Of a stretch of 24,407 nt of DNA, positions 7,662 through 22,688 are shown piece by piece. The notes beneath the pieces were generated by a model. That model did not search any database. It was given only the letters and a program-made list of their open reading frames with translations, and was not told the origin of the DNA. The translations under genes and the position numbers were made by a program. The stretch is from JAFGIT01 sp016929465 [NCBI: Candidatus Coatesbacteria bacterium] (GTDB lineage: Bacteria; B130-G9): the NCBI GenBank assembly GCA_016929465.1, contig JAFGIT010000150.1, positions 1-24,407 of the forward strand, written 5' to 3'. Every line of letters begins with the position of its first letter. The stretch's first letter is position 1.

Positions 7662-7693
7662 GAATGTAAGGTTGTGCGAAAACGTTACATTTT
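7662..7693 (-). repeat. Cassette 1 right-end motif (paired with 22655-22688)
   Basis: Read on the minus strand, this roughly 32-base motif starts AATGTAACGTTTTCGCA and closes TTACATT. Its ends form a 7-base inverted repeat (AATGTAA / TTACATT). A close relative, AATGTAACATTTTCGCA ... TACATT, lies downstream of the second HEPN cassette in the same polarity relative to the genes. It resembles an element end, although I cannot assign it to an insertion sequence family. Confidence 0.55.
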
Positions 7694-7694
7694 G

Positions 7695-7719
7695 TGGCGG
7701 GGCGCCCCTGGACTCGATC
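7695..7719 (-). other. tRNA 3'-end-like sequence next to cassette 1 end
   Basis: On the minus strand this reads GATCGAGTCCAGGGG followed by CGCCCCGCCA. It resembles the T-loop, acceptor stem and CCA end of a tRNA, for example proline- or tryptophan-type ends. No 5' part of a tRNA can be folded to it: the expected T-stem partner CCTGG is absent. It may be a leftover attachment-site fragment of an element that integrated in a tRNA gene, or chance resemblance. Confidence 0.3.
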
Positions 7720-7737
7720 TTGCAGAGGCTAATCACC

Positions 7738-8124
7738 TCAACTTAGGAGATTGCCAAAAGCTCTCTTAATGTTCTCAAGTTTAGCAATGCAAGTAGCAAC
7801 ATCATTGAAGTTAAAGCGGCGTCCTTTGTATCGTGCGCTAATCGAGGCATCAAATAGGAAGCGATAGTCCAAGTAGATAGCGTAGTCCAGATGGTCCTTC
7901 AAATATACCTCGCGCTCATCGTGAGATCTGAAATCCGTTGCAGACGGATCGAGTTTGAAATGAAGGTGATTCACACGGTGGAGCGCCGAGTAGAAGACAG
8001 CCACGATTCCCCATTCCTGTCGATTCTTGAAATCGGATGAGTTTCTCAACTCAACAGAGAAATTCTCCGCTCTCTCGGCGATCGTTAGGAAAGCAGAAGG
8101 ATTATTGTAGGTCAGGTTTGCCAT
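7738..8124 (-). CDS. HEPN-like domain protein, last gene of cassette 1
   Basis: This 128-residue, mostly helical protein has a helix-2 segment VAVFYSALHRVNHLHFKL (residues ~42-59). It fits the FYxAxxxxxxL pattern of HEPN proteins and is followed by DFRSHDEREVYLKDHL and a C-terminal helix. HEPN domains are helical-bundle proteins, often RNases in toxin-antitoxin and defence systems, although many small ones are non-catalytic. A clear RxxxxH catalytic motif is not certain here. It is the third gene of a minus-strand unit, 24 bases after its neighbour, with no strong ribosome site. No MNT nucleotidyltransferase partner, the usual antitoxin, is present. The gene at 22013 is its counterpart in the second cassette. 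Family call is moderately confident; toxin activity is unproven. Confidence 0.6.
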   Translation of the reverse strand: MANLTYNNPSAFLTIAERAENFSVELRNSSDFKNRQEWGIVAVFYSALHRVNHLHFKLDPSATDFRSHDEREVYLKDHLDYAIYLDYRFLFDASISARYKGRRFNFNDVATCIAKLENIKRAFGNLLS

Positions 8125-8148
8125 GCTGCGGATGATACCGAATCGTCT

Positions 8149-8598
8149 CTACGGGTGTATATCTTGCACCTCAAATCCCTGAGAGCGATAGTAGGCCTCG
8201 GGTAGTTCGGTAAGACAGCTCGTGATTCGCGAAATCTGTGCATATTTACCCTCTAGGGCCAAGATGTCTTTATAGAGAGGGTAGAATTCATCGAGACTGA
8301 TATCCGGGGCGACAAATTCTACATCAGCAACTCGGCTTGTCGTATTGAACCTCCAAAACATCGTCTTGATAGACTGGGATCGCTCCGCAATCTCCTGAAT
8401 CTCCTGACGTAAACTGGCCGCAGCGTTTATTGCCATTGTGAGTTCATAGGCCTCCCTGCGATCGTTGTCACCTACCTTGATTTTGATCCCCGCTGCAGGA
8501 TAGGCCACCTTCCTGCGCTTTGGAGCTATAGAGGGCTTGTGCTCCCATCGAAAATTGGATTTCCCGCCAGAAGGAGCCCATGGATGGTCTGGAGTCAA
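8149..8598 (-). CDS. Unknown protein, middle gene of cassette 1 (TTG start)
   Basis: This 149-residue protein matches no family I recognise. A TTG at 8598 is chosen as start because a perfect AAGGAGG lies 10 bases upstream, inside the end of the preceding gene, and because it begins 2 bases after that gene's stop codon. A longer reading from ATG 8652 would overlap the preceding gene by about 50 bases. The N-terminal third is basic and proline-rich (KPSIAPKRRKVAYP). The middle is helical (NAAASLRQEIQEIAERSQS), followed by DISLDEFYPLYKDILALEGK. There is no membrane segment. Its position between an unknown first gene and a HEPN gene parallels the gene at 21462, but no sequence similarity to that gene was seen. 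Confidence 0.65.
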   Translation of the reverse strand: MTPDHPWAPSGGKSNFRWEHKPSIAPKRRKVAYPAAGIKIKVGDNDRREAYELTMAINAAASLRQEIQEIAERSQSIKTMFWRFNTTSRVADVEFVAPDISLDEFYPLYKDILALEGKYAQISRITSCLTELPEAYYRSQGFEVQDIHP

Positions 8599-8600
8599 TT

Positions 8601-9032
8601 CTACTTGGCCTCCTTGGGCTGATTCGCTGTGAGGTCCACAGCGCCGATCCATTTACCGAGATGGTTGACCGCGAGCACAAATCCGACCTTGGGCTTCTCT
8701 TTCCACTCTATCGGCGCCAGCTCCATACACTGTAAGAATCCGTCAGGTTTGATCCGTAGTCGGATCTCGTATTGCTCTAAATACTCCTTGCACTTCTCAT
8801 TCAGTAGGAGCCGATTCACCAATTCGCCTGTGTCCGGATCGTTGCCGGTTAACCAAAGAGCCACCCTGGTGTCATTTAGGAAGGAGTAATCTGGATGAAG
8901 CTTCCCTTCAGTCTTAAGCTTCTGTATCAGCGGCTTCCAGATGTTCGGGTAGTTCTGCAGAATCATCGCATCGCTCATCTCGGATGGGCGAAGCTCGTTC
9001 GGATTATACTCTGACTTAGGCTTGTTTGGCAT
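8601..9032 (-). CDS. Unknown protein, first gene of cassette 1
   Basis: This 143-residue soluble protein belongs to no family I recognise. It has a charged N-terminus (MPNKPKSEYNPNELRPSEM), a helical SDAMILQNYPNIWKPLIQKL segment, and a beta-rich second half with RLRIKPDGFLQC and VGFVLAVNHLGKWIGAVDL. The start at 9032 has GGGAAGGGAG directly upstream, at the end of a roughly 200-base leader shared with the first gene of cassette 2. The downstream gene follows after 2 bases, so the three genes (9032 to 7738) form an operon. It occupies the slot that a TIGR04255-like gene fills in cassette 2. Confidence 0.65.
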   Translation of the reverse strand: MPNKPKSEYNPNELRPSEMSDAMILQNYPNIWKPLIQKLKTEGKLHPDYSFLNDTRVALWLTGNDPDTGELVNRLLLNEKCKEYLEQYEIRLRIKPDGFLQCMELAPIEWKEKPKVGFVLAVNHLGKWIGAVDLTANQPKEAK

Positions 9033-9235
9033 GTCTCCCTTCCCTCAAATGGCGTTCCGTCAATGAACTTATCGGTTACCATTTGCGCCGACTTTACGCC
9101 ACCTGTTCACCAACAGTCAACTAGTTTCTGTCCATACTCCCTACCTCTATAACCCTTCAGAAGGCGATCTCGCCTCAGAACCACATCCAGTTGTATGGCA
9201 GCATCAGCGCTCCCCGGCCCATAGCGTCAATGCCC
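9033..9235 (-). repeat. Cassette leader copy 1 (shared promoter/5' region)
   Basis: This roughly 200-base segment ends at the start codon of the gene at 9032. It is repeated in inverted orientation at 20486-20690, upstream of the unrelated first gene of cassette 2; by eye the core is about 85% identical. Shared blocks include GGGCATTGA, TGCCATAC, GAGGCGAGATCGCCTTCTGA, GGTAGGGAGTATGGACAGAA (AGTAGGG in copy 2), GCGTAAAGTCGG and ATGGTAACCGATAAGTTCAT. It contains a 6-bp hairpin (AGGCGA/TCGCCT, 9162-9175) and the promoter at 9091-9120. It also covers the end of a small minus-strand reading frame (9369-9175) that I do not consider a gene. Confidence 0.8.
9091..9120 (-). promoter_or_regulatory. Candidate promoter inside cassette leader 1
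   Basis: On the minus strand TTGACT (9120-9115), an 18-base spacer and TAAAGT (9096-9091) form a plausible sigma70 promoter. The same hexamers and spacing occur in the second leader copy (20600-20629) despite differences in the spacer sequence, which supports function. Confidence 0.5.
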
Positions 9236-9440
9236 CGCCCCTGACTTGGGCGCAATCGCTGAGAGCCTTCGGGCGAAATCGTCGTGGCGGCGTCAGGGTC
9301 CTTCATAAGAGGCGCAAAATCGATCTCGATGTCCACGGGCCGCCTTCGTTTTGCTGGCGCGCGACACATCAGAGAAGGGGCCTCGCTGGCGATTTTGTCG
9401 GCCTCGAGCTCTCAATGTGACGAGTCGATTGCATATCGTA
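9236..9440. other. Intergenic stretch between leader 1 and the AorC-like promoter
   Basis: I see no convincing gene. A short minus-strand frame (9369-9175, 64 codons, ending ALMLPYNWMWF) runs into leader copy 1. The corresponding sequence in copy 2 reads quite differently, so it is probably non-coding or the tail of a decayed gene. Confidence 0.35.
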
Positions 9441-9469
9441 TGGACAAGTCTCTTGCTGTTTTGGATAAT
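9441..9469 (+). promoter_or_regulatory. Candidate promoter of the plus-strand oxidoreductase operon
   Basis: TGGACA (9441-9446), a 17-base spacer and GATAAT (9464-9469) lie about 105 bases upstream of the AorC-like gene. Each hexamer differs from the sigma70 consensus by one base. It would drive the operon from 9575 onward. Confidence 0.5.
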
Positions 9470-9574
9470 ATGGATGCGAGATAATGCGGCGGCGCAGCAC
9501 GCCATCAGAACATAACAGGGCGAGAAGAAGCGCCGCGAGAATTTGGAGCTAACCACCAACAGGTCGAACGCGCG

Positions 9575-10846
9575 ATGAAGGTACTTATCGTCGGCAACGG
9601 TATAGCGGGCAACGCAGTGGCGTTCGGCCTTAGAGAGCTTGGTGCGAATTGCGAGATAGCGATCATCTCCGCCGAGGAATGGCCCGAATATGACCCCTGC
9701 TCGCTGCCCTACTTCGTGGGCGGCGATGTGCCGAGGGAAGCTGTCTTCAGGCGTACGCAGAACCACTATGATCAAAATCGCATCGACCTGATTCTCGGCG
9801 ACGAGGCCGTCGCGATCGACCCTTCGGCCAAGTGCGTCACAACCGGAAGCGGGGCAGTGAACCGCTATGACAAGCTGGTACTCGCCCACGGGGGCCGCCT
9901 TGTCAGGCCGCGCATCCCCAACTTGGACATGAAAGGCGTATTCAGCTGCAAGGAACTCTCGGAAGCTGACAGGTTATTCGAGCACGAGGGCAGCACAGCG
10001 GTCGTCATAGGCTCGGGTGCTATTGGTGTGGAGGTTGCCGAGGCTTTGAAAAAACGCGGCCTCGAGGTAACCATCATCGAGCTGCTCGGTTGGATACTGC
10101 CCGCGATGTTCGACGAGCCCATCTCGCGTCGTCTGGAAGATTCTCTGAAGGGAAATGGCATCAGCGTCTTAACGGGCGAGAAGGTGCTCCGGATAGAGGG
10201 TGATGGCTCGGTCGCTCAGGTTGTAACCGATAAGCGGACGATCGACTGCGACACTGTTGTGGTCGCAACCGGCGTCGTTCCTCGGAAGGAGCTGGCAGAA
10301 TCGGCGGATATAAGGGTCAACCGGGGAATCGTGGTTGATGAGAGTATGGCGACGAGCGTCGAGGGCATCTACGCTTGTGGTGACTGCGCCGAAGTTGTCG
10401 ATGCACTCACCGGCGTTCATTGCGTATCCCAGTTGAAGCACAACGCACTGGAACAGGCGAAGACGGTCGTGAAGGGGATCCTGGGCAAAAGGGAGCGCTA
10501 TCCGGGGGCATACGCTTTCGCGAGAGCACATTTCTTCGACACACACGCGGCCATGTTTGGCAGGACCACTCAATCGCTTTGTGACAGTGACGATGTCGAG
10601 GTCATCGACAGATCGAGCGGCGACGATTGCCTCAGGATTATCCTCAAAGGAGGAAAGGTTGTCGGTGGACAGGCGATTGGTGAGTATGCGGACAGCATCG
10701 GCCTCTTCATGGGCGCGATGTGGCGCGGAGATGATCTGGGCCAAATCAGAGGGAATTGGCAGCATATCTCCAAGCTCGACTCCCCCGCACCTTGGATATA
10801 TCGGAAGCTGGGCCGTCTAATTGGACTCGCCGCCGAGGGGAGTTGA
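9575..10846 (+). CDS. FAD/NAD(P)-dependent oxidoreductase, AorC/NADH-oxidase/CoA-disulfide-reductase-like
   Basis: This 423-residue class I pyridine nucleotide-disulfide-type flavoprotein has an N-terminal FAD-binding VGNGIAGNAVA (6-16). The redox-active segment YDPCSLPYFVGG puts a single Cys at 42, as in NADH oxidases and CoA-disulfide reductases. A second Rossmann motif VIGSGAIGVEVAEAL (144-158) binds NAD(P)H, and YACGDCAE (266-273) is the second FAD contact. AorC, the FAD subunit of the Aromatoleum tungsten AOR, is of the same broad type and links AOR to NAD. With the FeS protein at 1645 and AOR at the left edge, this completes a possible A-B-C set, although it is about 7 kb away on the other strand. 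The start has only a weak ribosome site (AGGT). Fold is certain; role with AOR is inferred. Confidence 0.85.
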   Translation: MKVLIVGNGIAGNAVAFGLRELGANCEIAIISAEEWPEYDPCSLPYFVGGDVPREAVFRRTQNHYDQNRIDLILGDEAVAIDPSAKCVTTGSGAVNRYDKLVLAHGGRLVRPRIPNLDMKGVFSCKELSEADRLFEHEGSTAVVIGSGAIGVEVAEALKKRGLEVTIIELLGWILPAMFDEPISRRLEDSLKGNGISVLTGEKVLRIEGDGSVAQVVTDKRTIDCDTVVVATGVVPRKELAESADIRVNRGIVVDESMATSVEGIYACGDCAEVVDALTGVHCVSQLKHNALEQAKTVVKGILGKRERYPGAYAFARAHFFDTHAAMFGRTTQSLCDSDDVEVIDRSSGDDCLRIILKGGKVVGGQAIGEYADSIGLFMGAMWRGDDLGQIRGNWQHISKLDSPAPWIYRKLGRLIGLAAEGS

Positions 10847-10937
10847 TTTGAGGCGTGACTCGAAATTGAGGGTAAGCTCGTTTCAGAAATGATTAGACCA
10901 GCAGATTCACCATTATTGATCCGTCTTTTATCAGCTA

Positions 10938-11067
10938 ATGCCCCGACGGGGCATCATGTGAATAGCCGTAGCGCGCCGGCCGAAGGCCAAGCCTACGGAC
11001 CAGATGGCGCCCTCACCGATTTCTTCCCCTCCCACCAATCGCGATGCGATTGGTGGGAGGGGAAGAA
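10938..11067. repeat. Dispersed structured repeat, copy 1 (three nested hairpins)
   Basis: Between the FAD oxidoreductase and the hydrolase lies a roughly 130-base element made of three palindromes. These are ATGCCCCGACGGGGCAT (10938-10954), a TAGCCGTAG ... CCTACGGA hairpin (10963-10999), and a perfect 22-bp stem with a 3-base loop (11021-11067; arm ending CCCACCAATCGC). The same three-part architecture is at 19258-19380. It is a bacterial interspersed repeat. In transcripts the 22-bp stem would be very stable and could attenuate or protect the operon mRNA. Confidence 0.8.
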
Positions 11068-11125
11068 GCCAGGGGGAAATGGCATCATGAACACACAAAT
11101 AAATGCAATCTGAAAGGAGCACGGC

Positions 11126-12184
11126 ATGAGTAAGGCTAGCGAGGAATGGGCAAAGAGGCCTTATGGCAGGGTCATATCAGAGGAGGAGCTCAAGAAGAGG
11201 ACACATCCTGCGTGGCCTTACATCTACTTCAATCCGGGAAAGCCGGTTGCCCCGGAGAAGGTCGAGGAGCTTCTCAGCGGAGTGATAGACGTTCACGTTC
11301 ACGGCGCTCCGCTTGGCGGCTGGCTACCGGGAAGGCCGACGATGGTCGAGACCTGTCTCGAGGCGACCGAGGCCGGCATGAGGGCTCTCGTCTTCAAGGA
11401 CCACAACACGATGACGTGCAACTGTGCGGATATCCTCCAGGATTTCCTGAACCGATTAGCATCGGACTATGCCGAGCAAGGAGTGGAGTGCACGCCGGTC
11501 GAGGTCTATGGCGGCATCGTCCTCAATGAAACCATCGGAGGGGTGAACGCTAAGGCCGTCAAAACCGCCCTCGGCTATGGCCGGTGCAAGGAAGTCTGGT
11601 TGCCATCTCTCGATGCTCAGCATCAGCGGAACGCGATGGGGCTCGAGGGTGGCATTTCTGTCACGGAGGGTAAAGACAAGCTGACCTCCGAGATGAAGGA
11701 GATAATCGACCTACTCGCCGAATACAACGGCAATGCAAAGGGCGATAGGGTCGCGCTCTCGACGTGTCACGTCTCGAACGAAGAGAAGGCCGCTGTCCTG
11801 AAGTACATCAAGAAGAAAGGCGCGGATGTTGATGTTCTGCTCGATCATGTGACGCAGGAGATGACCATCTTAAATCCCGCCGAGGCAAAAGAGATGATAG
11901 ACCTGGGTGGGTATCTGGAGTTCGCCGAATGCTCATGTATCCCCTGGCCTGGCATGCAGGACTGGATAATAGCATTCGATTACTCATTCGCCTTGATCAA
12001 GGAACTCATCGAAGAGAAGGGCCCAGACCACCTGGTCCTGATCACAGATGCGGGTCAGCCGGGAAACAAGCCCGTGCCGGGGTGGCGCATGTTCATCAAG
12101 ACGCTTCTCGCGCAGGGAGTGAGTGAGGCCGACATCAGCGTCATGGCGAAAGAGGTGCCCGCGAAGCTCATCTACGGCGCGTAG
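11126..12184 (+). CDS. DUF6282-like TIM-barrel metal-dependent hydrolase (amidohydrolase superfamily)
   Basis: This 352-residue cytoplasmic protein has amidohydrolase-type metal ligands in order: DVHVHG (His57, His59), FKDHN (His93), LSTCHVS (His215), LLDHVTQ (His241) and LITDAGQ (Asp308). The set HxH ... H ... H ... D is what a binuclear metal centre needs. The N-terminal ~50 residues (with RPYGRVISEEELKKR and YIYFNPGKP) precede the barrel and are typical of the DUF6282 group as I recall it. No function is established for that group; superfamily members hydrolyse amides, lactones or cyclic ureas. AAAGGAG lies 6 bases before the start. It lies downstream of the FAD oxidoreductase and 66 bases upstream of the GRE activase, so it probably acts on the substrate or product of the same pathway. 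Confidence 0.8.
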   Translation: MSKASEEWAKRPYGRVISEEELKKRTHPAWPYIYFNPGKPVAPEKVEELLSGVIDVHVHGAPLGGWLPGRPTMVETCLEATEAGMRALVFKDHNTMTCNCADILQDFLNRLASDYAEQGVECTPVEVYGGIVLNETIGGVNAKAVKTALGYGRCKEVWLPSLDAQHQRNAMGLEGGISVTEGKDKLTSEMKEIIDLLAEYNGNAKGDRVALSTCHVSNEEKAAVLKYIKKKGADVDVLLDHVTQEMTILNPAEAKEMIDLGGYLEFAECSCIPWPGMQDWIIAFDYSFALIKELIEEKGPDHLVLITDAGQPGNKPVPGWRMFIKTLLAQGVSEADISVMAKEVPAKLIYGA

Positions 12185-12205
12185 GGGTGAGGCCTTGTCT
12201 TCGTT

Positions 12206-12231
12206 CTGTAGGGGCGGTTCACGAACCGCCC
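12206..12231. repeat. REP-like hairpin, CTGTAGGGGCGG type
   Basis: A perfect 9-bp inverted repeat (GGGCGGTTC / GAACCGCCC, loop AC) lies in the short gap between the hydrolase and the activase. It begins CTGTAGGGGCGG, like the element at 1526. It is probably a dispersed palindromic repeat and not a terminator, as no T-tract follows. Confidence 0.6.
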
Positions 12232-12250
12232 GAATCTCTGAGGATGGGCT

Positions 12251-13162
12251 ATGAGAACGGCGATGGCGAACGGCATCATCACCGAGCTGAAGAGGTTCGC
12301 CACACACGATGGTCCGGGGATACGTACTTCGGTCTTTTTGAAGGGCTGTCCGCTACGGTGTGGCTGGTGCTCGAATCCGGAGACTCTCGATTCCGGGCCC
12401 CAGCTCTATTTCATCGCAAGTCGATGCAGGGAATGCGGAGCATGCGTCGAGGCCTGCCCCGAGGGGGCGGTCAGCATGGACTCGGAGGGGAGAATCGATC
12501 GCGAGAAGTGCAGCCTCTGCCTGAGCTGCGTGGATAGCTGTGTGTACGGTGCCCTGCGTACCATAGGCGAGCAAATGACCTCGGAACAGCTGATGATGGA
12601 GGTTGAGAAAGACCGCCCATTTTACGGGGAAGACGGCGGCCTTACGCTGACCGGGGGCGAGCCGCTCTTTCAGCCGGAGTTCTGCAATGCAATGCTGAAA
12701 GCATGCCGAGATAGAGGTATCTCGACCGTGCTCGATACATCCGGCTACGCCCCGCCCGAAGTCGTCGAGGAGATGATGAGATATACGGACCTCGTCTTAC
12801 TCGATATCAAACACCTCGATCCGAAGAAGCACCGAGAAGGAACTGGCGTCGATAACCGGCTTGTTCTCGAGAACGCGGCGCTCATGGCCAGCATGACGAC
12901 GGTTCGCATCTCCTTGCCGCTTGTCGGTGGCTTTAATAGCACGGAGGAGGAAGTCCGTGCGATTGCAGAGATGGCTGCATCTCTCGGGATCGAGCACATC
13001 GACGTAAATCCGATGCATTGTCTTGGCAGAGATAAGTACCGCTACCTGGGATTGACACCTCCACCCGAAAAATACAACACACCCACGAAGGTAGAGTTGA
13101 AACGGGCGGTTGCTGTAATCGAGAAACTCGGACTGAAGACGACAATCGGGAGAATGATGTGA
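12251..13162 (+). CDS. Glycyl radical enzyme activating enzyme (radical SAM)
   Basis: This 303-residue radical SAM protein uses S-adenosylmethionine to install the glycyl radical on its GRE. It has the radical SAM motif CPLRCGWC (Cys33, 37, 40) preceded by THDGPGIRTSVFLKGC, which is diagnostic of GRE activases. A ferredoxin-like insert follows with two further clusters, CRECGACVEACP (59-70) and CSLCLSCVDSC (87-97), then LTGGEPLF (133-140). The two-cluster insert is typical of activases for dehydratase, decarboxylase and fumarate-adding GREs, and is absent from simple PflA. The start at 12251 has GAGG 7 bases upstream; ATG 12263 is an alternative. It is encoded apart from its likely partner at 3088, the only GRE in the window. 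Function is firm; pairing is inferred. Confidence 0.93.
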   Translation: MRTAMANGIITELKRFATHDGPGIRTSVFLKGCPLRCGWCSNPETLDSGPQLYFIASRCRECGACVEACPEGAVSMDSEGRIDREKCSLCLSCVDSCVYGALRTIGEQMTSEQLMMEVEKDRPFYGEDGGLTLTGGEPLFQPEFCNAMLKACRDRGISTVLDTSGYAPPEVVEEMMRYTDLVLLDIKHLDPKKHREGTGVDNRLVLENAALMASMTTVRISLPLVGGFNSTEEEVRAIAEMAASLGIEHIDVNPMHCLGRDKYRYLGLTPPPEKYNTPTKVELKRAVAVIEKLGLKTTIGRMM

Positions 13163-13293
13163 GGCCTTCCAGGTCGGAGTTTGGATAGGCCGATTCCTGT
13201 GATCTCAACATGGACACGAGACACCCATATCGAGTAATCTGAGGTATCTTGAGCCGTAATAAAAGAATCGAATATCCATCGAAGGAGACTTAA

Positions 13294-14568
13294 ATGGCGA
13301 ATTTGCATACTGAGTTCTGTGGAATTCCGATCAAGAACCCAATAGGTGTAACCTCGTGCGATTTTGGCGGGCATGAACGGCTTTTGAGGCGGTGCGTCGA
13401 GCAGGGCATCGGCTGGATTATCGGCAAGACGGTCCACGAGATCGACGGGCCGCATCGCTGGCCCAGGCCATACTTCTACTCGCTGAGGCGCTTCGGGAAG
13501 GACCTCAAGGATGCCTGGGTATGCAGTCAGATGTTCCACAACATGCCGTATCGGAAGTGGCTCAATGAGGAGCTCCCGAAATGTCTCGAGACATGCCAGG
13601 AATTCGATGTGCTCTTCATCGGCTCCTGCTCCGGCATTGGTGCCGACGCTGACACCTGGATCCCGTTCTTGAAGGACATGGCTGCGGCCGGGGTCAAGAT
13701 GGTCGAGCTGGACACGGGCGGACCGCACGCGACGTTCGGCGCCGTGGCTGCCCACAAAGCCGTCGGCGCGCCCCTGGCAATGGATCCCGATACTGCGTAT
13801 AAGGTGACGAAGGCCTGTGTCGAGGCAGTCGATATCCCCATCATGTTCAAGATGACGCCTCAGTGTGTGAACATGGCGGGAGTGGCGCTTGCGGTCGAGA
13901 AGGCGGGGGCCGCTGCAATTTCCGCCAACAACGCATTCTACGGCTGCTGGATCGATCACGAGACGGGGACATTCTTCGGGGTGCCCTCCTCGATGGGGGG
14001 ACTCATCGGAAGACCCTGGCAGCTATTCTCGCTGGCGAAGGTCATGGAGATCACTGCAACGGTCAAGATACCCGTTCTCGGCGGCGGCGGTTCCTTCACT
14101 TACGATGATTGCGTCCGCTATCTCATGGCAGGCTGTGGCGTGGCTGGGCTTTGCTCGTCTGTCTATTCAAGGGGCGTCGGCGTTCTCGAGGAGTGCGTCA
14201 ACGGATTGGCGCAGTTCATGGATAGGAAGGGCTACTCTTCGGTAGATGACTTTCGCGGATGCGTGGTGAAGCAATTCCAGTATCTAAGGGAGTGGAACAG
14301 AGAGGCGCAGATGGCAGGGCTGACGCCGATAATCCCCGAGTTCAACAAGGACAAGTGCACCATGTGCGGCATCTGCCAGAAGCTCTGCCCCTACGGCGCA
14401 ATTTCGCTAAAGAGCGGGTCGAGCATTCCCGAGGTCAACAGGGAGCACTGCTTCGGCTGCGGCTGGTGCGTGGGCCATTGCCCCCAAGAGGCTATCCGGT
14501 GTGTTCATATTAATACGGGAGAATTGATCTGGAACGGCTACGGCACCATCAAGGACTGGGTGAAGTAA
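13294..14568 (+). CDS. Dihydropyrimidine/dihydroorotate-dehydrogenase-like flavoprotein with two [4Fe-4S] clusters
   Basis: This 424-residue protein has an FMN-binding TIM barrel (residues ~1-310) fused to a C-terminal 2x[4Fe-4S] domain: CTMCGICQKLCP (355-366) and CFGCGWCVGHCP (386-397). The layout equals PreA, the catalytic part of bacterial dihydropyrimidine dehydrogenase. Family marks are KNPIGVTSC (14-22), FKMTPQ (185-190) and LGGGGSFTYDDCVRYLMAG (262-280). However, the SCPH motif of DPD, which supplies the substrate-facing region near the catalytic loop, is TGGPH (141-145) here, and the following ACGQ-type loop with the acid Cys is not recognisable. The enzyme is thus unlikely to be an ordinary uracil reductase. 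AAGGAG precedes the start, 131 bases after the activase. It is probably a reductase or dehydrogenase step of the GRE pathway. Confidence 0.82.
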   Translation: MANLHTEFCGIPIKNPIGVTSCDFGGHERLLRRCVEQGIGWIIGKTVHEIDGPHRWPRPYFYSLRRFGKDLKDAWVCSQMFHNMPYRKWLNEELPKCLETCQEFDVLFIGSCSGIGADADTWIPFLKDMAAAGVKMVELDTGGPHATFGAVAAHKAVGAPLAMDPDTAYKVTKACVEAVDIPIMFKMTPQCVNMAGVALAVEKAGAAAISANNAFYGCWIDHETGTFFGVPSSMGGLIGRPWQLFSLAKVMEITATVKIPVLGGGGSFTYDDCVRYLMAGCGVAGLCSSVYSRGVGVLEECVNGLAQFMDRKGYSSVDDFRGCVVKQFQYLREWNREAQMAGLTPIIPEFNKDKCTMCGICQKLCPYGAISLKSGSSIPEVNREHCFGCGWCVGHCPQEAIRCVHINTGELIWNGYGTIKDWVK

Positions 14569-15551: not shown

Positions 15552-15597
15552 TATCGATTCTCCTATCAAAGTTGAGAGTTATAGCCGCCCATGGATT

Positions 15598-16893: not shown

Positions 16894-16925
16894 CGATCAC
16901 GCGGTCAGAGCGGGATCACATCAGA

Positions 16926-18095
16926 TCATGGTCCGACGGCCTGCGGTGCGGACGTAGCCCTGAGAAGCTCTTCGAGACCAGCGCCCGAATCCATGCCTTC
17001 CGGGAGGATCACGATCGGCTTGCCCTCGAGCGCCTTTGCGAGCTCCATCTGAAGAGACGCCTCTCCACCGGGGCCCGAAATCGCCAGGGCCTTTTCCCGA
17101 ACGAGATCGGCTTCCCGCCTCAACCTGAGCCTGAGCATCTCAGCACGCTGCTTCATTCTCTCGAGAGATAATTCTGCGTCGGCCTTAGCGGCATATATCT
17201 TGCGCTCTGCTGCTGCTGAGGAAAGCCTGGCATTGGCCTTTGCCTGTTCGAGCTCCTGCTTCCGCTCCTCGAGAGTTGCCTCTCGCTGATCATCGACCGA
17301 GGCCAGGCGCTGGTTCAGTATCTTCACATCCTGTAGGTAGTTATGAAATTCACGGTCGAAAGTGAATTGGTCCAGCGAAAAGCTCTCGACGGTGACACCC
17401 GCCGCGCCAAACAGCTCATTCAGGGCGATGCGGCACTGGTCTGATTTCGCAACTCTCTCGGTCGAGTTGAAGAAGGCGACGCTGTCGAGCTCGCCGAAAA
17501 CAGACCTTATAGCGCTTCTTGCTGCGGGGATCAGGTACAGCTCGAGAAGCTTCTGGGCGTCTTCCATGCCAATGAACCTGATTAGCTGGGGAGCGTTTTC
17601 TTCAGCCACGTGGAAGACGAGGGTCGCCTCCAGCTCCACATCTTCGCCATCACTCGTCTTGGTTCGAATCGGAAGCGTGGGTTGACGCATCTCCGCATTT
17701 CTCTCGCGGATTTCTGCCTCGCTCAAATCCCGACCTCTATCTAGGCGCCAGTAGTCGGTTGCCCCGGCCTGGACCTGCGCTGACTTCCTGCTCGAGTAGG
17801 CCCACTCATCCGATTGGCTCCTCAATGGCTCGAAGGTAAGGGTCTGCTCTGTCGTGTTTACCGCGAAATAGTCCGTCGTGAGTGGATTGTAGAAGTGCAG
17901 CCCCTCGCGGAGCACTTCGCTCCTGAGTCCATCCCCTGAGCCGCCTACCTCGTCCATCAGGACGGCCACATGGCCGGGTGGGACGTCGAATGAACAACGC
18001 CAGGCGATTAGAATGGCTGCGACTATAATAATTATTGTGAATATGATGGAGCTGCAGCCCCAGTTCGTTGATTTACTACTCTTTTTGTCGCTCAT
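16926..18095 (-). CDS. SPFH/band-7 domain membrane protein (second gene of pair)
   Basis: This 389-residue protein has one N-terminal transmembrane segment (residues ~15-33; IIFTIIIIVAAILIAW). An SPFH domain follows from about residue 38 (VPPGHVAVLMDEVGG) to ~250. A long charged coiled coil comes next (~255-340; QREATLEERKQELEQAKANA), and then the C-terminal segment with GKPIVILPEGM seen in many flotillin-like proteins. SPFH proteins form membrane-bound oligomeric rings or scaffolds. AAGGAG lies 5 bases before the start, and the gene follows its paralogue by 39 bases, so the two are one operon and probably form a hetero-oligomer like HflK/HflC. No FtsH or NfeD partner is nearby, so the assignment stays generic. 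Confidence 0.85.
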   Translation of the reverse strand: MSDKKSSKSTNWGCSSIIFTIIIIVAAILIAWRCSFDVPPGHVAVLMDEVGGSGDGLRSEVLREGLHFYNPLTTDYFAVNTTEQTLTFEPLRSQSDEWAYSSRKSAQVQAGATDYWRLDRGRDLSEAEIRERNAEMRQPTLPIRTKTSDGEDVELEATLVFHVAEENAPQLIRFIGMEDAQKLLELYLIPAARSAIRSVFGELDSVAFFNSTERVAKSDQCRIALNELFGAAGVTVESFSLDQFTFDREFHNYLQDVKILNQRLASVDDQREATLEERKQELEQAKANARLSSAAAERKIYAAKADAELSLERMKQRAEMLRLRLRREADLVREKALAISGPGGEASLQMELAKALEGKPIVILPEGMDSGAGLEELLRATSAPQAVGP

Positions 18096-18134
18096 CTTCG
18101 CTCCTTATGTCGATAGAGTGCTCTCGCCACTGCA

Positions 18135-19091
18135 CTAACGAGTTCGCTTCTCTTTGCCGCTAAGTGCATCGAGCAGACCTATATCGGACGGCCTGAGAAT
18201 GATGAATCTGAGCCCGGTCCTGAGAGCGTCGATCATCTCCATCCTCATCATCGCATTCGCGTCCGCCGACTTGAGGACCTCGGTCATCATCCCCTGGCCC
18301 TCTACTTCCGCCTGATGGATCAGGAAGTCGCCCTGTTGACGAGCGTTCTCCGCGATCATTTGTGCCTCCTGATCGGCCGCGTCCGCTGTGCGTTGCGCGT
18401 TCCTTCTGACTTCCTCGATCTCTGCTTCGAGTGCCTGTGTATCGACGTTGCCCTGGGACTCGAGCGAGGCGAGTTTCATCTCGAGGGACCTCCTGTATTT
18501 CTGCTGCCTCGTCTGGCGCTGATACTTCAGCTCCTGCTCATAGGGCGCTGCAAACGCGAAGTCCCGCAGAAAGAATTGCCCCAGCTTCAGGCCGCGTTTG
18601 GCGAGGAGCTCCGATAGTTTCGCCTCAATTGCAGCCTTTTGACGGCCTCGCCATGCCGCGTCGAGAAATCCATCCGCATCGGTCTTCTGCAGAACCTCCC
18701 GGACCACGCCTTTGAGGTCGTTTGGCATTACGCTGCGGATATATCGATCGCCATCGTTCAGAGCAAATTGGAGGGCGAGATCGGAGGGCTCGACGTTGAA
18801 GGTCGTGGTCGCGTCAACGAAAACCCTCAGGTTGTCTTCGAGAGTAATCTCAACGTGCTCGATATCCAGCTTTCGCACGATCGTGCTGACTAGCTCGACC
18901 TCGTGCAGTATTGGCAGGACGACTCGAAGCCCGGGCAACAGGACCTTCACTCTCTCCGCTTCGCCTCCAGAGGAGCCGAACTGCGACCTGCGAACGGCCA
19001 CCGCTCCACATGGGATTTTGTCTAAAATGACTAGCCTGACTATGCCGAGAGCAACAGCCAGGAGGACCAGGACAAGAACCATCTTCTTCAT
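18135..19091 (-). CDS. SPFH/band-7 domain membrane protein (first gene of pair)
   Basis: This 318-residue protein has an N-terminal membrane anchor (KKMVLVLVLLAVALGIVRLV, residues 2-21), a band-7 domain (~25-190) and a coiled coil rich in Arg, Glu, Ala and Gln (~195-270). The C-terminal LRFIILRPSDIGLLDAL resembles the short hydrophobic strand of SPFH C-termini. The start at 19091 is favoured by GGGAGG 8 bases upstream; a GTG 9 bases earlier is in frame but too close to that site. It forms an operon with the SPFH gene that follows. Despite the shared architecture the two sequences are quite divergent, as for HflK and HflC. Confidence 0.83.
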   Translation of the reverse strand: MKKMVLVLVLLAVALGIVRLVILDKIPCGAVAVRRSQFGSSGGEAERVKVLLPGLRVVLPILHEVELVSTIVRKLDIEHVEITLEDNLRVFVDATTTFNVEPSDLALQFALNDGDRYIRSVMPNDLKGVVREVLQKTDADGFLDAAWRGRQKAAIEAKLSELLAKRGLKLGQFFLRDFAFAAPYEQELKYQRQTRQQKYRRSLEMKLASLESQGNVDTQALEAEIEEVRRNAQRTADAADQEAQMIAENARQQGDFLIHQAEVEGQGMMTEVLKSADANAMMRMEMIDALRTGLRFIILRPSDIGLLDALSGKEKRTR

Positions 19092-19257
19092 TACGCGCAC
19101 CTCCCGTTTTATTGGACCAAACCGGAGATACTTTACGACGGTTCAAGTCCACAGGCAAGGCGGTTGGCTGGGATGGCTTCCTCCTGAATTGCAGTAATCC
19201 GGGCTCGATGGCGAATCCAGCGAGTTAATTCCTCAATTGATCTGTTTTGCTCATTTG

Positions 19258-19380
19258 ATGCCCCAGCGGGGCATAAGATGGGTAGCCGTAGGTGTAGGCC
19301 GCAGGCCAAACCTACGGATTTGTGGGCGCCAAAGCCAGACCTGCCCGCCCACCAATCGCCGCGTGATTGGCGGGCGGGCA
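19258..19380. repeat. Dispersed structured repeat, copy 2
   Basis: This repeats the architecture of 10938-11067: ATGCCCCAGCGGGGCAT (19258-19274), a TAGCCGTAGGT ... ACCTACGGA hairpin, and a long stem (arms 19342-19357 and 19365-19380, 16 bp with one mismatch). The stem bases differ from copy 1 (CCCGCCCACC against CCCCTCCCACC), but both arms changed together for most pairs, so structure is conserved over sequence. It abuts the stop codon of the small membrane protein gene at 19382. Confidence 0.8.
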
Positions 19381-19381
19381 A

Positions 19382-19654
19382 TCAATCGCCTACATAGTCA
19401 CGCCCCCGGAAGGCCATGATCCCGAGTGCACCAATGCAGATGAGCTGTGCTATGAACAAAAGGAAATAGCTATCGCTGGATACGGGTGGCTCATCGCTTA
19501 TCAAATGACGAATTGTCAGATAGCTGAAGTATGAGGACAGGCCGCCCGGAACGAGAGCCCACCACCGCCAGCCCCTCTTCCAGGCAAGGACAGTGAGGCC
19601 GATGGCGAGTACGACTATGTAAATACCTCTACCAGAGACATAAGTCACCAGCAA
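19382..19654 (-). CDS. Small membrane protein, tandem paralogue B
   Basis: This is a protein of about 90 residues with three predicted membrane segments (IYIVVLAIGLTVLAW, a middle segment near LSSYFSYLTIRHL, and YFLLFIAQLICIGALGIMAF). It is clearly paralogous to the next gene upstream (19712): GRG....AI..T..AW.RGW....L.PG and SDS.(Y)LL......G.(M)AF/Y.(R) align throughout. No function is known to me. The start is uncertain: only TTG (19654) or GTG (19648) are available and no strong ribosome site is visible. The last codons run into the structured repeat (19258-19380), so its C-terminus may have been altered by repeat insertion. Confidence 0.6.
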   Translation of the reverse strand: MLVTYVSGRGIYIVVLAIGLTVLAWKRGWRWWALVPGGLSSYFSYLTIRHLISDEPPVSSDSYFLLFIAQLICIGALGIMAFRGRDYVGD

Positions 19655-19711
19655 AGAGAGTTTCGCCTATCTCTTTCAGTTTCGTGCATCAAAGGCGTCG
19701 TCAAGATCGGA

Positions 19712-19969
19712 TCACTCCCTCGCACAATATGCCATGAGTCCCAATATACAGACACAGAGACCACTTCCCAGTAGAAGCAGATACGCGGAGTCGCTGAAGA
19801 GATAGCCCTCATGGGTGAATTGCGTATATAAGAATACGCCGCCCATCAATGTCCCTGGTATGCCCGGGATGAGGGCTTTCGGGCCCCAGCCCCTTCTCCA
19901 GGCGAAGATGGTCATTGCGATCGCAAAGATCACGACCGGACACCCCCTACCAGCTGCACCTCTCAGCAT
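19712..19969 (-). CDS. Small membrane protein, tandem paralogue A
   Basis: This 85-residue protein has three hydrophobic segments (CPVVIFAIAMTIFAW; IPGTLMGGVFLY; SAYLLLLGSGLCVCILGLMAY) separated by a basic RRGWGPKALIPG turn. GAGGAG lies 5 bases before the ATG. It is followed after 57 bases by its paralogue (19654-19382), probably in one transcript. A third, truncated relative lies at 22785-22874 on the same strand. Function is unknown; it resembles small PQ-rich or four-helix-type uncharacterised membrane proteins only in general composition. Confidence 0.65.
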   Translation of the reverse strand: MLRGAAGRGCPVVIFAIAMTIFAWRRGWGPKALIPGIPGTLMGGVFLYTQFTHEGYLFSDSAYLLLLGSGLCVCILGLMAYCARE

Positions 19970-20018
19970 CGCGACTCCTCTCAGAACCGGCTATTGCCGG
20001 TCAATACCGTGCGATCAG

Positions 20019-20056
20019 GCCTCTATGCCGTCTGCGCCGACGGCGTCACCCTGCAG
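20019..20056 (-). other. Possible duplicated 3' end of the symporter gene
   Basis: The minus strand here reads KTLQGDAVGADGIEA then stop. It resembles the symporter C-terminal RTTVNVWGDAVGAAVIE encoded around 23005-23050. Eighteen bases (20034-20051 and 23019-23036) are identical. In both places the segment lies 50-130 bases upstream of a small-membrane-protein paralogue, which suggests duplication of a block. Confidence 0.35.
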
Positions 20057-20125
20057 CGTTTTTCATTGGGTTCACAGCAAGCGCCCAGACAGCTTCGGAC
20101 AATCTTGTATCCCAATCTAGCGATT

Positions 20126-20435
20126 TCATTCTCTCTCGTCCTTGGTGTCTTTATTCTTTGAGCGCACTGACGTTTCTTCCAACATGAATTTCTTGATTGC
20201 TGCGTCTTGCCAGGCCATTGAGAGCTTCCTTGCACTCTCGCCCCGACAGGCCACATAGTATTCCAAAGCGGACGCATATATGGAACTGCTATCTTTGCAT
20301 CCAGCTCGCACACTCTGGAAGCTCGGGAATCGGGTACTGCTTCTCGATGTCTTGGAAAACACCGGAGAGCCATTTTTCCAGTTCTAAGATTCTTGTGAGG
20401 CTCTTTCTCTTAAGGTAAATCTCTTTTAGTTGCAG
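20126..20435 (-). pseudogene. Frameshifted gene for a small helical protein of unknown family
   Basis: Two overlapping minus-strand frames each look protein-like and join into one. The first (20435-20289) reads LQLKEIYLKRKSLTRILELE and continues through WLSGVFQDIEKQYPIPELPE. The second (to 20126) reads SSSIYASALEYYVACRGESA and continues through WQDAAIKKFMLEE to a charged tail. The switch lies near 20290. The first frame has no start codon after its upstream stop, so the gene looks truncated as well as shifted. No family is recognised. It lies just outside the left end of cassette 2 and could be a relic of an earlier gene there. Confidence 0.4.
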
Positions 20436-20485
20436 TTACTTGAGACAGAAGAGTTCATTGTCCTTTGTCTCCTTTACTTCCTCAA

Positions 20486-20690
20486 GGGCATTGATACTAT
20501 GGGTAGCGGGGGCTGTGCTTGCCATACCAGTGGTTGTGGTTTAGAGGCGAGATCGCCTTCTGAAGGGTTATAGAAGTAGGGAGTATGGACAGAAGAGAGT
20601 TGACTATCGGTGAATGGGCAGCGTAAAGTCGGCTCAAATGGTAACCGATAAGTTCATTACGGAACACCATTTGCCGAAGGGAGATATAAC
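20486..20690 (+). repeat. Cassette leader copy 2 (shared promoter/5' region)
   Basis: This is the inverted partner of 9033-9235. Homology starts at GGGCATTGATACTATGGG and runs through the hairpin AGGCGAGATCGCCT (20545-20558), the promoter and ATGGTAACCGATAAGTTCAT to GAAGGGAGA just before the first gene. It then stops: coding sequences downstream are unrelated. The conservation of a whole upstream region in front of different genes suggests a shared regulatory or mobility function. Confidence 0.8.
20600..20629 (+). promoter_or_regulatory. Candidate promoter inside cassette leader 2
   Basis: TTGACT (20600-20605), an 18-base spacer and TAAAGT (20624-20629) match the first leader copy exactly in hexamers and spacing. 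Transcription would begin near 20636, which argues against the in-frame ATG at 20614 as the start of the following gene. Confidence 0.5.
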
Positions 20691-20697
20691 AGGTACC

Positions 20698-21462
20698 GTG
20701 ACCAGGAAATACGCCAATCCTCCTGTGCAGGAAGTCTGCGCTGAAATCAGATTCGAAAGACCCGAGAACTGGGATTTAACTCTACCAGGCCTTATTTACC
20801 AGGCGCTGGGAGGAGAAGAGAAATTCCCTCACAAGGAGCAAGAGAGGGCTCTCGCCAAGTCTAGCCTCACGCTTGGGCCATCTAGTCTTAGACAGACAGC
20901 GGACCTCGTAGATCGAGTTAAGCTCTTCACTGACGACAGGACGACTGTCATTCAATTGAGTTCTGATCTACTGAGTGTTCATAAGCTCGCCCCGTACGAC
21001 ACATGGGAGGCTTTCGCGCCAGTCATTGGGGAATCACTCAGTGAGTATGTGCGATATGCGCAACCCAAAGCCTTAGCCGGATTAAAGCTCTACTATGTGG
21101 ATAGAATAGAACTTCCTTGCGGGATCGATGGGATTGGTCAGTATCTCAATTTGGCCCCTTACGCTGGCCCTGAACTCATGGAGTCAGAGCAGTTTGACAC
21201 ATTCATCAGTGGGATATGCAGTCGCCATGAAGGAGGCAGAGATGCGCTGCGCATGGAGCTTCTGACGGTCGCCCCAAGTGAGTCCTCAAAGCTACATCTG
21301 CAACTGCTTTCGCTCTACTTTCTAGTTAATATAAAGAGCGTCCCCCTGGAAACGCCCGAGATCATGACATGGCTTAAGACCGCACATGACAACGTGTCCA
21401 GGGCATTCGAGTCCTGTATCACAGATAACACTCGAGCGTTATTTGGTGAGGTAATGACCTAG
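20698..21462 (+). CDS. TIGR04255-family protein, first gene of cassette 2
   Basis: This protein of about 254 residues starts at GTG 20698 (MTRKYANPPVQEVCAEIRFE). It matches the TIGR04255 pattern of YxNPPIxEV followed by W...P.....(F)P, and a C-terminal WLKTAHDNVSRAFESCITD segment, which is also typical. The family is sporadic and of unknown function. In-frame ATGs at 20614 and 20638 lie inside the shared leader and at or before its predicted transcription start, so they are less likely. GGGAG of the leader precedes the GTG. The stop overlaps the next start by one base (TAGTG), giving tight coupling with the unknown gene and HEPN gene that follow. Confidence 0.8.
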   Translation: MTRKYANPPVQEVCAEIRFERPENWDLTLPGLIYQALGGEEKFPHKEQERALAKSSLTLGPSSLRQTADLVDRVKLFTDDRTTVIQLSSDLLSVHKLAPYDTWEAFAPVIGESLSEYVRYAQPKALAGLKLYYVDRIELPCGIDGIGQYLNLAPYAGPELMESEQFDTFISGICSRHEGGRDALRMELLTVAPSESSKLHLQLLSLYFLVNIKSVPLETPEIMTWLKTAHDNVSRAFESCITDNTRALFGEVMT

Positions 21463-22016
21463 TGAAGAATAATAAGTGTGCAGTAGGATATGCGGAAGAA
21501 GATAGCGGCGTTCTGGCCAGCCTGATGCTGCAGAGCGGCCTCTCGGAGTGGGGGGAGTGGTCGGAAAAGCCGTCTTCGCTCATAATGAACTCTGCGACCA
21601 CTTCCGGCGACATTTCGCAATCAGGTGGGGAAGCGCACCTAGATTGTCTATTATCAGTGCGCCCCCGAACTAGCGAATGCTCATTTGAGGTGTCAGTCAA
21701 TCGCTCTCCTGACTTGCCCGAGATATATGAGAGACCAGAAAATGCAGTCTTAGAGCATTTGTCTCAGCACCCATCAATCATTGGTCTGTTGGCGAGAGCA
21801 GCGTCGAAGACCGTCCAGTACTTCGGAAGTGATATACGTCTGGCGCTTGAACTAATCCATGATCCTGAGGATTCCGGAGCCGGCCCCACATTGTACGTGG
21901 TTATCGGGACTGAGCTGCCTTGGGAAGAATCGCTGAAGGCTCTGCGCAGATTCGACAATGAGTGGTGGCTTGAAGCTTCTCAGGGATTAGATACACCCCT
22001 CTGTATAACGACATGA
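21462..22016 (+). CDS. Unknown protein, middle gene of cassette 2 (GTG start)
   Basis: This 184-residue soluble protein starts at GTG overlapping the preceding stop codon and ends in an ATGA overlap with the HEPN gene. No family is recognised. It has a Ser-rich N-terminal half (SLIMNSATTSGDISQSGGEA), a predicted helix VLEHLSQHPSIIGLLARAAS, and a strand-helix C-terminal part TLYVVIGTELPWEESLKALR with the following FDNEWWLEAS. The latter (an I/V...L....EAL..L..FD..WW pattern) looks like a small alpha/beta domain. The tight overlaps on both sides mean it is made together with its neighbours, perhaps as a complex subunit or antitoxin for the HEPN protein. Confidence 0.75.
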   Translation: MKNNKCAVGYAEEDSGVLASLMLQSGLSEWGEWSEKPSSLIMNSATTSGDISQSGGEAHLDCLLSVRPRTSECSFEVSVNRSPDLPEIYERPENAVLEHLSQHPSIIGLLARAASKTVQYFGSDIRLALELIHDPEDSGAGPTLYVVIGTELPWEESLKALRRFDNEWWLEASQGLDTPLCITT

Positions 22017-22444
22017 CGCCTGCGGCTGAAGCCTTCAATTGGGAAGATTATCTGACACTCGCGACGGAGCTAAGCGACCAAGAATCAGCGGATGAGCTGA
22101 GCGAGGCGAAGGCGCGTTGCTCGGTTAGTAGATGCTATTATGCGGCCTATTGGGCGGCGAGAACATATGCTGAAGCTGAGGGGTGCGTTGTTAGAAATGA
22201 TCCCCATACGACAGTGTGGAAATGGTTCAGGAATAAGGGCATGGCAAAGGGAGCAATTGCCTCCGACGGGGACAGACTTACGGGCCGTCGCATCTGGGCG
22301 GACTACAAGCCAAATCCATATGGCCTCCCCGGTAAGGTCAGGAAAAGCTTGGATTTGGCCAGGGAATGCGTGGAGATGGCGAAGACAATTATCGGATGGG
22401 TCAAGGATCTCCCACCGCCAAATCGTGAGGGTGCCGGCCAGTAA
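22013..22444 (+). CDS. HEPN domain protein, last gene of cassette 2
   Basis: This 143-residue helical protein carries the recognisable HEPN signature SVSRCYYAAYWAARTYAEAE (residues ~38-57) and a later RRIWADYKPN (~93-102), equivalent to the R..ADY segment of small HEPN proteins. A C-terminal helix ARECVEMAKTIIGWV follows. HEPN proteins of this size are often toxins paired with MNT nucleotidyltransferases; none is present. The classical RxxxxH pair is not clearly conserved, so nuclease activity is doubtful. The start overlaps the previous stop (ATGA). It occupies the same third position as the HEPN-like gene at 7738 in cassette 1. Confidence 0.8.
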   Translation: MTPAAEAFNWEDYLTLATELSDQESADELSEAKARCSVSRCYYAAYWAARTYAEAEGCVVRNDPHTTVWKWFRNKGMAKGAIASDGDRLTGRRIWADYKPNPYGLPGKVRKSLDLARECVEMAKTIIGWVKDLPPPNREGAGQ

Positions 22445-22654
22445 CTTAGAAGCACTCTAGACATCGCCAATCCCTCATTCAACCCCCAATACTCCCCCCA
22501 ACACTCAATCGGGGGCAAAAGCGCTTCTATAGGCATTCTACGCGATCACCTCAGACCTCATTACTTGCCCGCCTGTTTCGCCTCGTGGCGGCCACTTTTC
22601 ACCGGATGTGGGAGGTCCGGCGTCTCGCTGTCTTTCGGTGATTCACACCCATCT

Positions 22655-22688
22655 GAAATGTAACATTTTCGCAATCCCCTACATTTCC
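22655..22688 (+). repeat. Cassette 2 right-end motif (paired with 7662-7693)
   Basis: The motif reads AATGTAACATTTTCGCA and then ends CCCCTACATTTC; AATGTA and TACATT form an inverted repeat. It matches the motif beyond cassette 1 in about 25 of 32 positions and in the same orientation relative to the genes. The interval between the HEPN stop (22444) and this motif holds no gene; a 5-bp CCCCC/GGGGG hairpin lies near 22490-22515. Confidence 0.55.

What the first reader, a model, noticed from the sequence alone, without database searches (positions are those of the whole stretch)
7662..22688. Two modular HEPN cassettes share both ends but not their genes
Unit 1 (9235 to 7662, minus) and unit 2 (20486 to 22688, plus) each have a ~200-nt leader, three tightly packed genes ending in a HEPN-like gene, and a ~32-nt terminal motif, all in the same polarity. 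The leaders and end motifs are homologous while the first two genes are unrelated. This is what a family of mobile or recombining units with a conserved frame and exchangeable cargo would look like. Alternatives are a shared promoter captured by recombination, or two old copies of one locus with gene replacement.
Basis: partly seen in the sequence, partly recalled or inferred. Interest (0 to 1): 0.75.

Follow-up and report, generated by a model that had tools for sequence, protein, structure and literature searches.

The report
Promoter-led cassettes with swappable gene cargo
Three short gene units in two related uncultured bacteria share the same front end (a promoter-like region) and the same back-end mark but carry quite different, partly toxin-like genes, which looks like a small family of cassettes whose contents are swapped.

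Summary
The two leaders are homologous (206 nt, 85%, E 2e-58) and the end motifs match (36 nt, 81%, E 5e-4); between and beyond them nothing does, and the three gene positions are unrelated. In the window's genome leader and motif occur twice each, only here. A profile of the two leaders found a third in another genus, G001:C89 (E 1e-4); 957 nt on, in the same polarity, lies the same end motif. Between them is a third, unrelated cargo without HEPN: a DUF5678-like gene and a retropepsin-like protease. Leader and motif were paired in 3 of 3 cases, with no convincing orphan in 386 genomes. HEPN is therefore cargo, not frame. All three leaders hold a promoter-like pair at the same place. Unit 3 shares its contig with an integrase and a primase-like gene. 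G002 has unit 2's flanking genes side by side. I read this as accessory-gene cassettes with a conserved frame and exchangeable cargo. That they move is inferred; no recombinase action, target duplication or exact empty site was shown.

The parts
9031..9235 (-). leader of unit 1: promoter-like region and 5' untranslated region up to the first start codon
   Evidence: 206 nt at 85% to unit 2; third copy in G001:C89:8477-8675; TTGACT-N18-TAAAGT inside
8601..9032 (-). unit 1 gene 1, 143 aa, unknown
   Evidence: no Pfam family at E 1, only E 0.16 in NCBIfam, none in PADLOC or PHROGs at E 1; single-sequence model pLDDT 42
8149..8652 (-). unit 1 gene 2, up to 167 aa (start uncertain), partner of the HEPN-like gene
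   Evidence: C-terminal part similar to the gene before the HEPN-like gene in G001 (L095) and G003 (L096): 0/500 shuffles as good for each
7738..8124 (-). unit 1 gene 3, 128 aa, divergent HEPN-like protein (tentative)
   Evidence: relatives in 5 of the other 385 genomes searched; one relative has PF05168 E 0.0096; profile comparison P 0.0017
7657..7692 (-). end motif of unit 1, imperfect palindrome AATGTAACGTT-N7-AACCTTACATT
20486..20690 (+). leader of unit 2
   Evidence: TTGACT-N18-TAAAGT
20698..21462 (+). unit 2 gene 1, TIGR04255 family protein, 254 aa from the GTG chosen here
   Evidence: NCBIfam TIGR04255 E 5.3e-29, 101.8 bits against a cut-off of 30
21462..22016 (+). unit 2 gene 2, 184 aa, unknown
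   Evidence: similar middle gene in the same three-gene operon of G003, L060: 32% over 53 aa, E 5.5e-4
22013..22444 (+). unit 2 gene 3, HEPN (PF05168-like), 143 aa
   Evidence: Pfam E 0.0013; homolog in L060 E 1e-9
22656..22691 (+). end motif of unit 2

Best explanation
A small family of accessory-gene cassettes with a conserved frame. The frame is a leader of about 200 nt, which reaches up to the first start codon and holds a promoter-like pair, plus an imperfectly palindromic 29-nt end mark 45 to 211 nt after the last stop codon. The frame holds a short co-directional operon that differs completely between copies: unknown/partner/HEPN-like, TIGR04255/unknown/HEPN, and DUF5678-like/retropepsin-like protease. 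Shown: homology of both ends in three units of two genera; same order and polarity; unrelated cargo; conserved promoter-like geometry; two of the cargo modules, or part of them, also occurring without the frame. Inferred: the cargo is toxin-antitoxin- or defence-like; it is expressed from the leader; cargo is replaced, or whole units are spread, by recombination at the shared ends, partly on integrative elements, as suggested by unit 3 (contig with integrase and primase-like gene) and by unit 2 lying where G002 has only two adjacent genes.
For: Leader and motif homology with breaks at both ends. Third leader found by a profile of the first two (E 9.8e-5; alignment score matched by 0 of 1000 dinucleotide shuffles against unit 1 and by 3 of 1000 against unit 2), with the end motif 957 nt on (4 mismatches to the pattern fixed before this unit was known, which with 3 mismatches allowed had missed it). 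In 386 genomes the loosened motif pattern occurs with 0 mismatches only at these 3 places; 7 further matches in 6 genomes all had 3 mismatches, against 5 in the reversed control. The 3-leader profile gave nothing else better than E 0.0039 in 386 genomes. Promoter-like pair at positions 116, 115 and 123 of the leaders with an 18-nt spacer. The unit 2 gene set occurs in G003 without leader or motif, and the gene 2 + HEPN-like dyad of unit 1 in G001 and G003 likewise. Phage_integrase (E 4e-28) and a protein with primase profiles on the unit 3 contig. Unit 2's flanking genes are adjacent in G002.
Against: Only three units, in 2 of the 4 genomes held for this phylum. No direct or inverted repeat joins the two ends of any unit beyond the range of 60 shuffles. 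No recombinase beside units 1 and 2 among the 20 of 89 window ORFs scanned with Pfam. Promoter-like pairs are common by chance: 1 found against 2.4 expected and 4 against 1.9; only the conserved position speaks for this one. A TIGR04255 gene on a Thermus plasmid has no annotated HEPN gene behind it. Function of every cargo protein is untested.
Confidence: 0.6

Rival explanations
1. A regulon rather than a mobile unit: the leader is a promoter and operator region, and the end motif a 3' control site, reused in front of and behind unrelated accessory operons because one regulator controls them. Copies of the leader spread by recombination, but the units as such do not move.
For: The leader homology ends at the first start codon and holds a promoter-like pair at one place in all three. 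A shared regulatory sequence before unrelated accessory genes is known in archaeal viruses (PMC11065993, passages read). No transposition mark was found.
Against: A match of 85% over 206 nt is more than an operator needs. It does not by itself explain a matching mark behind the operon in 3 of 3 cases, nor insertion-like absence in G002.
Confidence: 0.3
2. A site-specific recombination system: the end motif is the core site of a tyrosine recombinase (11-nt inverted arms round 7 nt), and cassettes are inserted and excised there, much as integron cassettes are at attC.
For: The motif can be read as 11+7+11 with arms matching 10/11, 6/11 and 10/11 in units 1, 2 and 3. It lies at the 3' end in the same polarity in all three. 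As single-stranded DNA the strand opposite to the genes folds better than all 200 shuffles in each unit; the other strand is beaten by 14, 4 and 7 of 200. An integrase gene lies on the unit 3 contig.
Against: No partner site at the leader side. No RYYYAAC or GTTRRRY core in the ends or leaders of the three units. The integrase of G001:C89 lies beside what looks, by eye in the output, like a tRNA 3' fragment, which suggests another attachment site; ARAGORN calls no tRNA there.
Confidence: 0.18
3. Two old copies of one locus whose genes were replaced locally, with the leaders kept alike by gene conversion between inverted copies 11.2 kb apart.
For: Units 1 and 2 point outward, with their leaders as inverted repeats on one contig.
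Against: A third copy in another genus with both ends and other cargo.
Confidence: 0.12

Closest known systems
Prophage accessory (moron) loci
   Same: Short accessory loci set among phage or element genes, some with a promoter of their own (PMC7067206, passages read).
   Different: Here one and the same leader and end mark recur round unrelated cargo. The end motif is not an intrinsic-terminator-like site by the simple scan.
Defence hotspots of P2-like phages and P4-like satellites
   Same: Variable small defence operons at a fixed place of an integrative element; exchange by recombination is suggested there too (PMC9122126, passages read).
   Different: There the fixed frame is the neighbouring phage genes; here it is a leader and a motif that recur at three different places.
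Conserved early-promoter regulons of archaeal viruses
   Same: Highly conserved regulatory sequence before unrelated accessory genes (PMC11065993, passages read).
   Different: No matching 3' mark is mentioned in the passages read; bacterial-type promoter-like pair and operons of two or three genes here.
Integron gene cassettes
   Same: One palindromic site at the 3' end of exchangeable cargo (general knowledge; abstract of PMC11014356 read for the promoterless nature of most cassettes). HEPN cargo is known in integrons: PMC3710099 names an integron-associated HEPN structure (passage).
   Different: No attC core, a leader of its own, no array, no integrase recognised beside units 1 and 2.
HEPN-MNT toxin-antitoxin modules
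   Same: HEPN gene last in a tight operon, as in MNT-HEPN dyads (PMC3710099, passages read).
   Different: No MNT gene was recognised among the partners.

Membership tests
Integron gene cassette | attC with RYYYAAC / GTTRRRY core sites | tested here: not met
   0 matches on both strands of the stretches of 150-156 nt round the ends and 230-250 nt round the leaders of the 3 units; the consensus is recalled
Integron gene cassette | integron integrase (intI) platform | tested here: inconclusive
   no integrase among 20 of 89 window ORFs scanned; the G001:C89 integrase was not typed as IntI or otherwise
Transposon or miniature element with terminal inverted repeats | inverted repeats at both ends | tested here: not met
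   best inverted match between the ends within the range of 60 shuffles in all 3 units
Transposon or miniature element with terminal inverted repeats | target-site duplication | tested here: inconclusive
   no direct repeat above the shuffled range; a duplication of a few nt would not stand out, and exact outer ends are uncertain
Prophage or element accessory (moron) locus | own promoter | tested here: inconclusive
   conserved promoter-like pair at one place in 3 of 3 leaders; no transcript data
Prophage or element accessory (moron) locus | own terminator | tested here: not met
   simple consensus scan: no terminator-like site on the coding strand of units 1 and 2; unit 3 not scanned
Prophage or element accessory (moron) locus | lies in a phage or integrative element | tested here: inconclusive
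   unit 3: contig with integrase and primase-like gene; unit 1: only a Bro-N gene nearby; unit 2: none seen
HEPN-MNT toxin-antitoxin | HEPN domain | tested here: inconclusive
   unit 2 E 0.0013, below the cut-off; unit 1 weak; unit 3 none
HEPN-MNT toxin-antitoxin | MNT nucleotidyltransferase partner | tested here: not met
   no nucleotidyltransferase family listed at E 1 for the first two genes of units 1 and 2
Structured RNA leader | folding better than shuffles, or covariation | tested here: inconclusive
   folding: z -0.56 and -0.86, 52 and 37 of 200 shuffles as good; three-leader consensus: 7 of 50 pairs have a change on both sides, 20 of 50 are broken or gapped in a sequence, covariation term +0.8; no Rfam match

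The most novel reading that the evidence does not exclude
An undescribed cassette system of a small bacterial phylum: promoter-bearing gene cassettes closed by a 29-nt palindromic site that a tyrosine recombinase of integrative elements uses to insert and exchange toxin- or defence-like cargo, working like integrons but with a site, a leader and an enzyme of their own.
Probability: 0.17. Interest if true: 0.8.

Novelty: new variant of a known kind. Interest (0 to 1): 0.52.

Why it matters
If the frame is what it seems, the leader and the end motif are baits: any operon found between them in this phylum is a candidate conflict module (toxin-antitoxin, defence, counter-defence), whatever its sequence. 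It also makes a concrete, testable case of how accessory operons keep one expression frame while their content turns over.

Tried and rejected
Structured RNA or RNA antitoxin in the leader: folding no better than shuffles, no Rfam match, covariation not convincing with three sequences. Intrinsic terminator as end motif: not recognised in units 1 and 2, and the consensus hairpin is weak (-1.57 kcal/mol as RNA). Tn3-like or other terminal inverted repeats (a recalled resemblance): no paired end. Integron attC: no core. Direct repeat between the integrase side and the unit 3 end as attL/attR: best score 11 against a shuffled maximum of 13. Relation between the middle genes: none found. The 17-nt core of the motif gave 41 stretches in genome contigs; none carries CCYTACATT three bases on; L026 has CCTTACGTT six bases on. 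I take all 41 as chance: my own arithmetic for even base use gives about 60. A leader BLAST over 145 genomes gave, besides the own genome, 12 short matches (18-37 nt) in 10 genomes at E 0.007-0.07, taken as chance. Leader: none in plasmids and phages by distant search and no exact piece in viral contigs. Motif: none in viral contigs; not searched in plasmids and phages. Relatives of unit 1 genes 1 and 3: none in viral contigs and plasmids. Unit 2 in plasmids: its HEPN gene partly in 2 records (23% of its length), its TIGR04255 gene in 2 records. The primase-like protein of unit 3's contig: none in viral contigs; partial matches, at most 51% of its length among the 8 listed, in 1168 phage records. 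Its retropepsin-like protein: none in plasmids. Models of P0003 and P0001 were too poor to use. TIGR04255 is named in 0 papers of the library; DUF5678 in 1, judged unrelated from its listing only.

Weak leader-like hits not counted as units: G003:C231 (E 0.115), G003:C13 (0.189) and G000:C200 (0.236), and 10 matches in 10 genomes of other families at E 0.0039-0.088. Their surroundings were not examined, although five stretches were fetched; L121 and L120 were rescored.
Full report
What was checked. The window is contig 280 of a 3.19-Mb, 423-contig genome, 86% complete. Only four genomes of its phylum are held, all of one family: G000 (own), G001 and G003 (one genus), G002 (another genus).

The two ends are real. 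The leaders align over 206 nt at 85% (E 2e-58) and the end motifs over 36 nt at 81% (E 5e-4). The next best match between the two stretches has E 0.83, so homology breaks at the outer edge of the leader, at the first start codon and on both sides of the motif. In the window the 16-nt core of the motif occurs twice, against 0.18 expected with up to 3 mismatches, 1 of 100 shuffles having as many (the pattern was taken from the two copies). In the whole genome the leader has two matches and the motif two, all here.

The genes. Unit 2 is a TIGR04255 protein (E 5e-29), an unknown protein and a HEPN protein (PF05168 E 0.0013). The same three genes in the same order lie in G003 (L060) at 31-32% identity, the middle one over 53 aa only, without the leader or the motif. 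Unit 1 is an unknown protein, a second gene and a divergent HEPN-like protein. Relatives of the last one were found in 5 of the other 385 genomes searched; in two of them, G001 and G003, it is preceded by a relative of gene 2 (0 of 500 shuffles as good), again without leader or motif. So these cargoes, or parts of them, also live outside the frame; this was not tested for the cargo of unit 3 in relatives. None of the three gene positions is related between units 1 and 2: 138, 130 and 139 of 500 shuffles scored as well. The HEPN identity of the unit 1 gene is tentative.

A third unit. A sequence profile of the two leaders was run over the four phylum genomes. It gave G001:C89:8503-8673 at E 9.8e-5; next were 0.115, 0.189 and 0.236. 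Against unit 1 this stretch scores 53, with 0 of 1000 dinucleotide shuffles as good; against unit 2 it scores 38, with 3 of 1000. Reading on in the same direction, a 93-aa gene (DUF5678 at E 0.09 only) and a 162-aa retropepsin-like protease (gag-asp_proteas E 1.4e-6, 29.2 bits against a cut-off of 28.2) follow, then the end motif at 9630-9658, 175 nt after the stop codon. It differs at 4 positions from the pattern that I had used before this unit was known, so that call, which allowed 3, had missed it. Neither cargo gene matches a HEPN family. The loosened motif pattern was then searched in 386 genomes: three places with 0 mismatches, all three being these units; the pattern had been loosened to fit them, so only the absence of others is informative. 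Seven more places in 6 other genomes had 3 mismatches each, against 5 for the reversed control. The 3-leader profile over the same 386 genomes gave the three units, then 10 matches at E 0.0039 and worse (strict filters, so weak copies may be lost). The motif profile over the phylum gave the three, then E 0.75. Leader and motif were thus found together in 3 of 3 cases.

What the leader is. In all three a TTGAC[TA]-N18-TAA[AT]GT pair sits at the same place: 116, 115 and 123 nt from the leader's start, that of unit 3 being where the profile match begins. The homology of units 1 and 2 stops at the ribosome-binding region. Such pairs are common by chance; the conserved position is the evidence. There is no convincing sign of a structured RNA.

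What the end motif is. It is an imperfect palindrome that can be read as 11-nt arms round 7 nt, the arms matching 10/11, 6/11 and 10/11. It is not an intrinsic terminator by the scan of units 1 and 2, carries no integron core and has no partner at the other end of the unit. A recombinase core site or another protein-binding site both remain possible.

Surroundings. The unit 3 contig carries a Phage_integrase protein (E 4e-28) and a protein with primase profiles (PHROG E 7e-16; partial matches in 1168 phage records), with what looks like a tRNA 3' fragment beside the integrase (by eye; ARAGORN finds no tRNA). That is the look of an integrative element; no other end was recognised on the contig. 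Unit 1 lies near a Bro-N gene of a virus-associated family. Unit 2 lies between Band_7 and SDF genes that are about 70 nt apart in G002 but 3.9 kb apart here; the SDF gene was found in 2 of the 4 phylum genomes, G000 and G002. Copies of a small membrane ORF lie on both sides of unit 2 (19382-19654 and 19712-19969 against a fragment near 22788-22890). This is a locus-level empty site in another genus, not a precise one; the 3.9 kb hold more than unit 2. The flanks of unit 1 and of unit 3 were not compared in relatives beyond the stretches.

Reading. The best account is a small family of accessory-gene cassettes with a conserved leader and a conserved end mark and exchangeable, conflict-type cargo, associated at least once with a contig that looks like an integrative element. 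Whether the ends are conserved for movement, for regulation or for both cannot be told from three copies. It works like prophage accessory loci and like the variable defence hotspots of phage satellites (PMC7067206 and PMC9122126, passages read), with the shared-promoter logic reported for archaeal virus accessory genes (PMC11065993, passages read). I file it in none of them. A search for papers joining conserved upstream regions, cargo, cassettes and HEPN gave 3, none of which describes this in its listing (listing only).

Noticed in passing
window 11021-11067 and 19344-19388: A perfect 22-nt-arm hairpin (TTCTTCCCCTCCCACCAATCGC...) and a related repeat at 80%, 8.3 kb away.
   Followed up: no
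window 19382-19654, 19712-19969, about 22788-22890: Copies of a small membrane-protein-like ORF on both sides of unit 2; the third is only a C-terminal fragment (tblastx E 4e-7).
   Followed up: partly
L065 (G000:C149), L062 (G002:C2), L064 (G003:C306): A second TIGR04255 type lies after a LarA/DUF2088-like gene (name recalled, from no call) in G000, G002 and G003, with no leader match there.
   Followed up: partly
L148 about 2310-2370 (G001:C89): tRNA 3'-end-like fragment next to the integrase, a possible attachment site of the element that carries unit 3 (by eye).
   Followed up: partly
window 3088-5589: Large glycyl radical enzyme nearest to indoleacetate decarboxylase (E 1e-182, but 609 bits against a cut-off of 1100).
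   Followed up: no
L098 (G318): A HEPN-like gene after a 274-aa and a 169-aa gene; the latter resembles TIGR04255 by eye only, with no NCBIfam match.
   Followed up: partly
L097 (G130) 70-1500: The relative of the unit 1 HEPN-like gene in G130 lies just after a 476-aa protein that looks by eye like an IscB-type HNH nuclease (name recalled).
   Followed up: no
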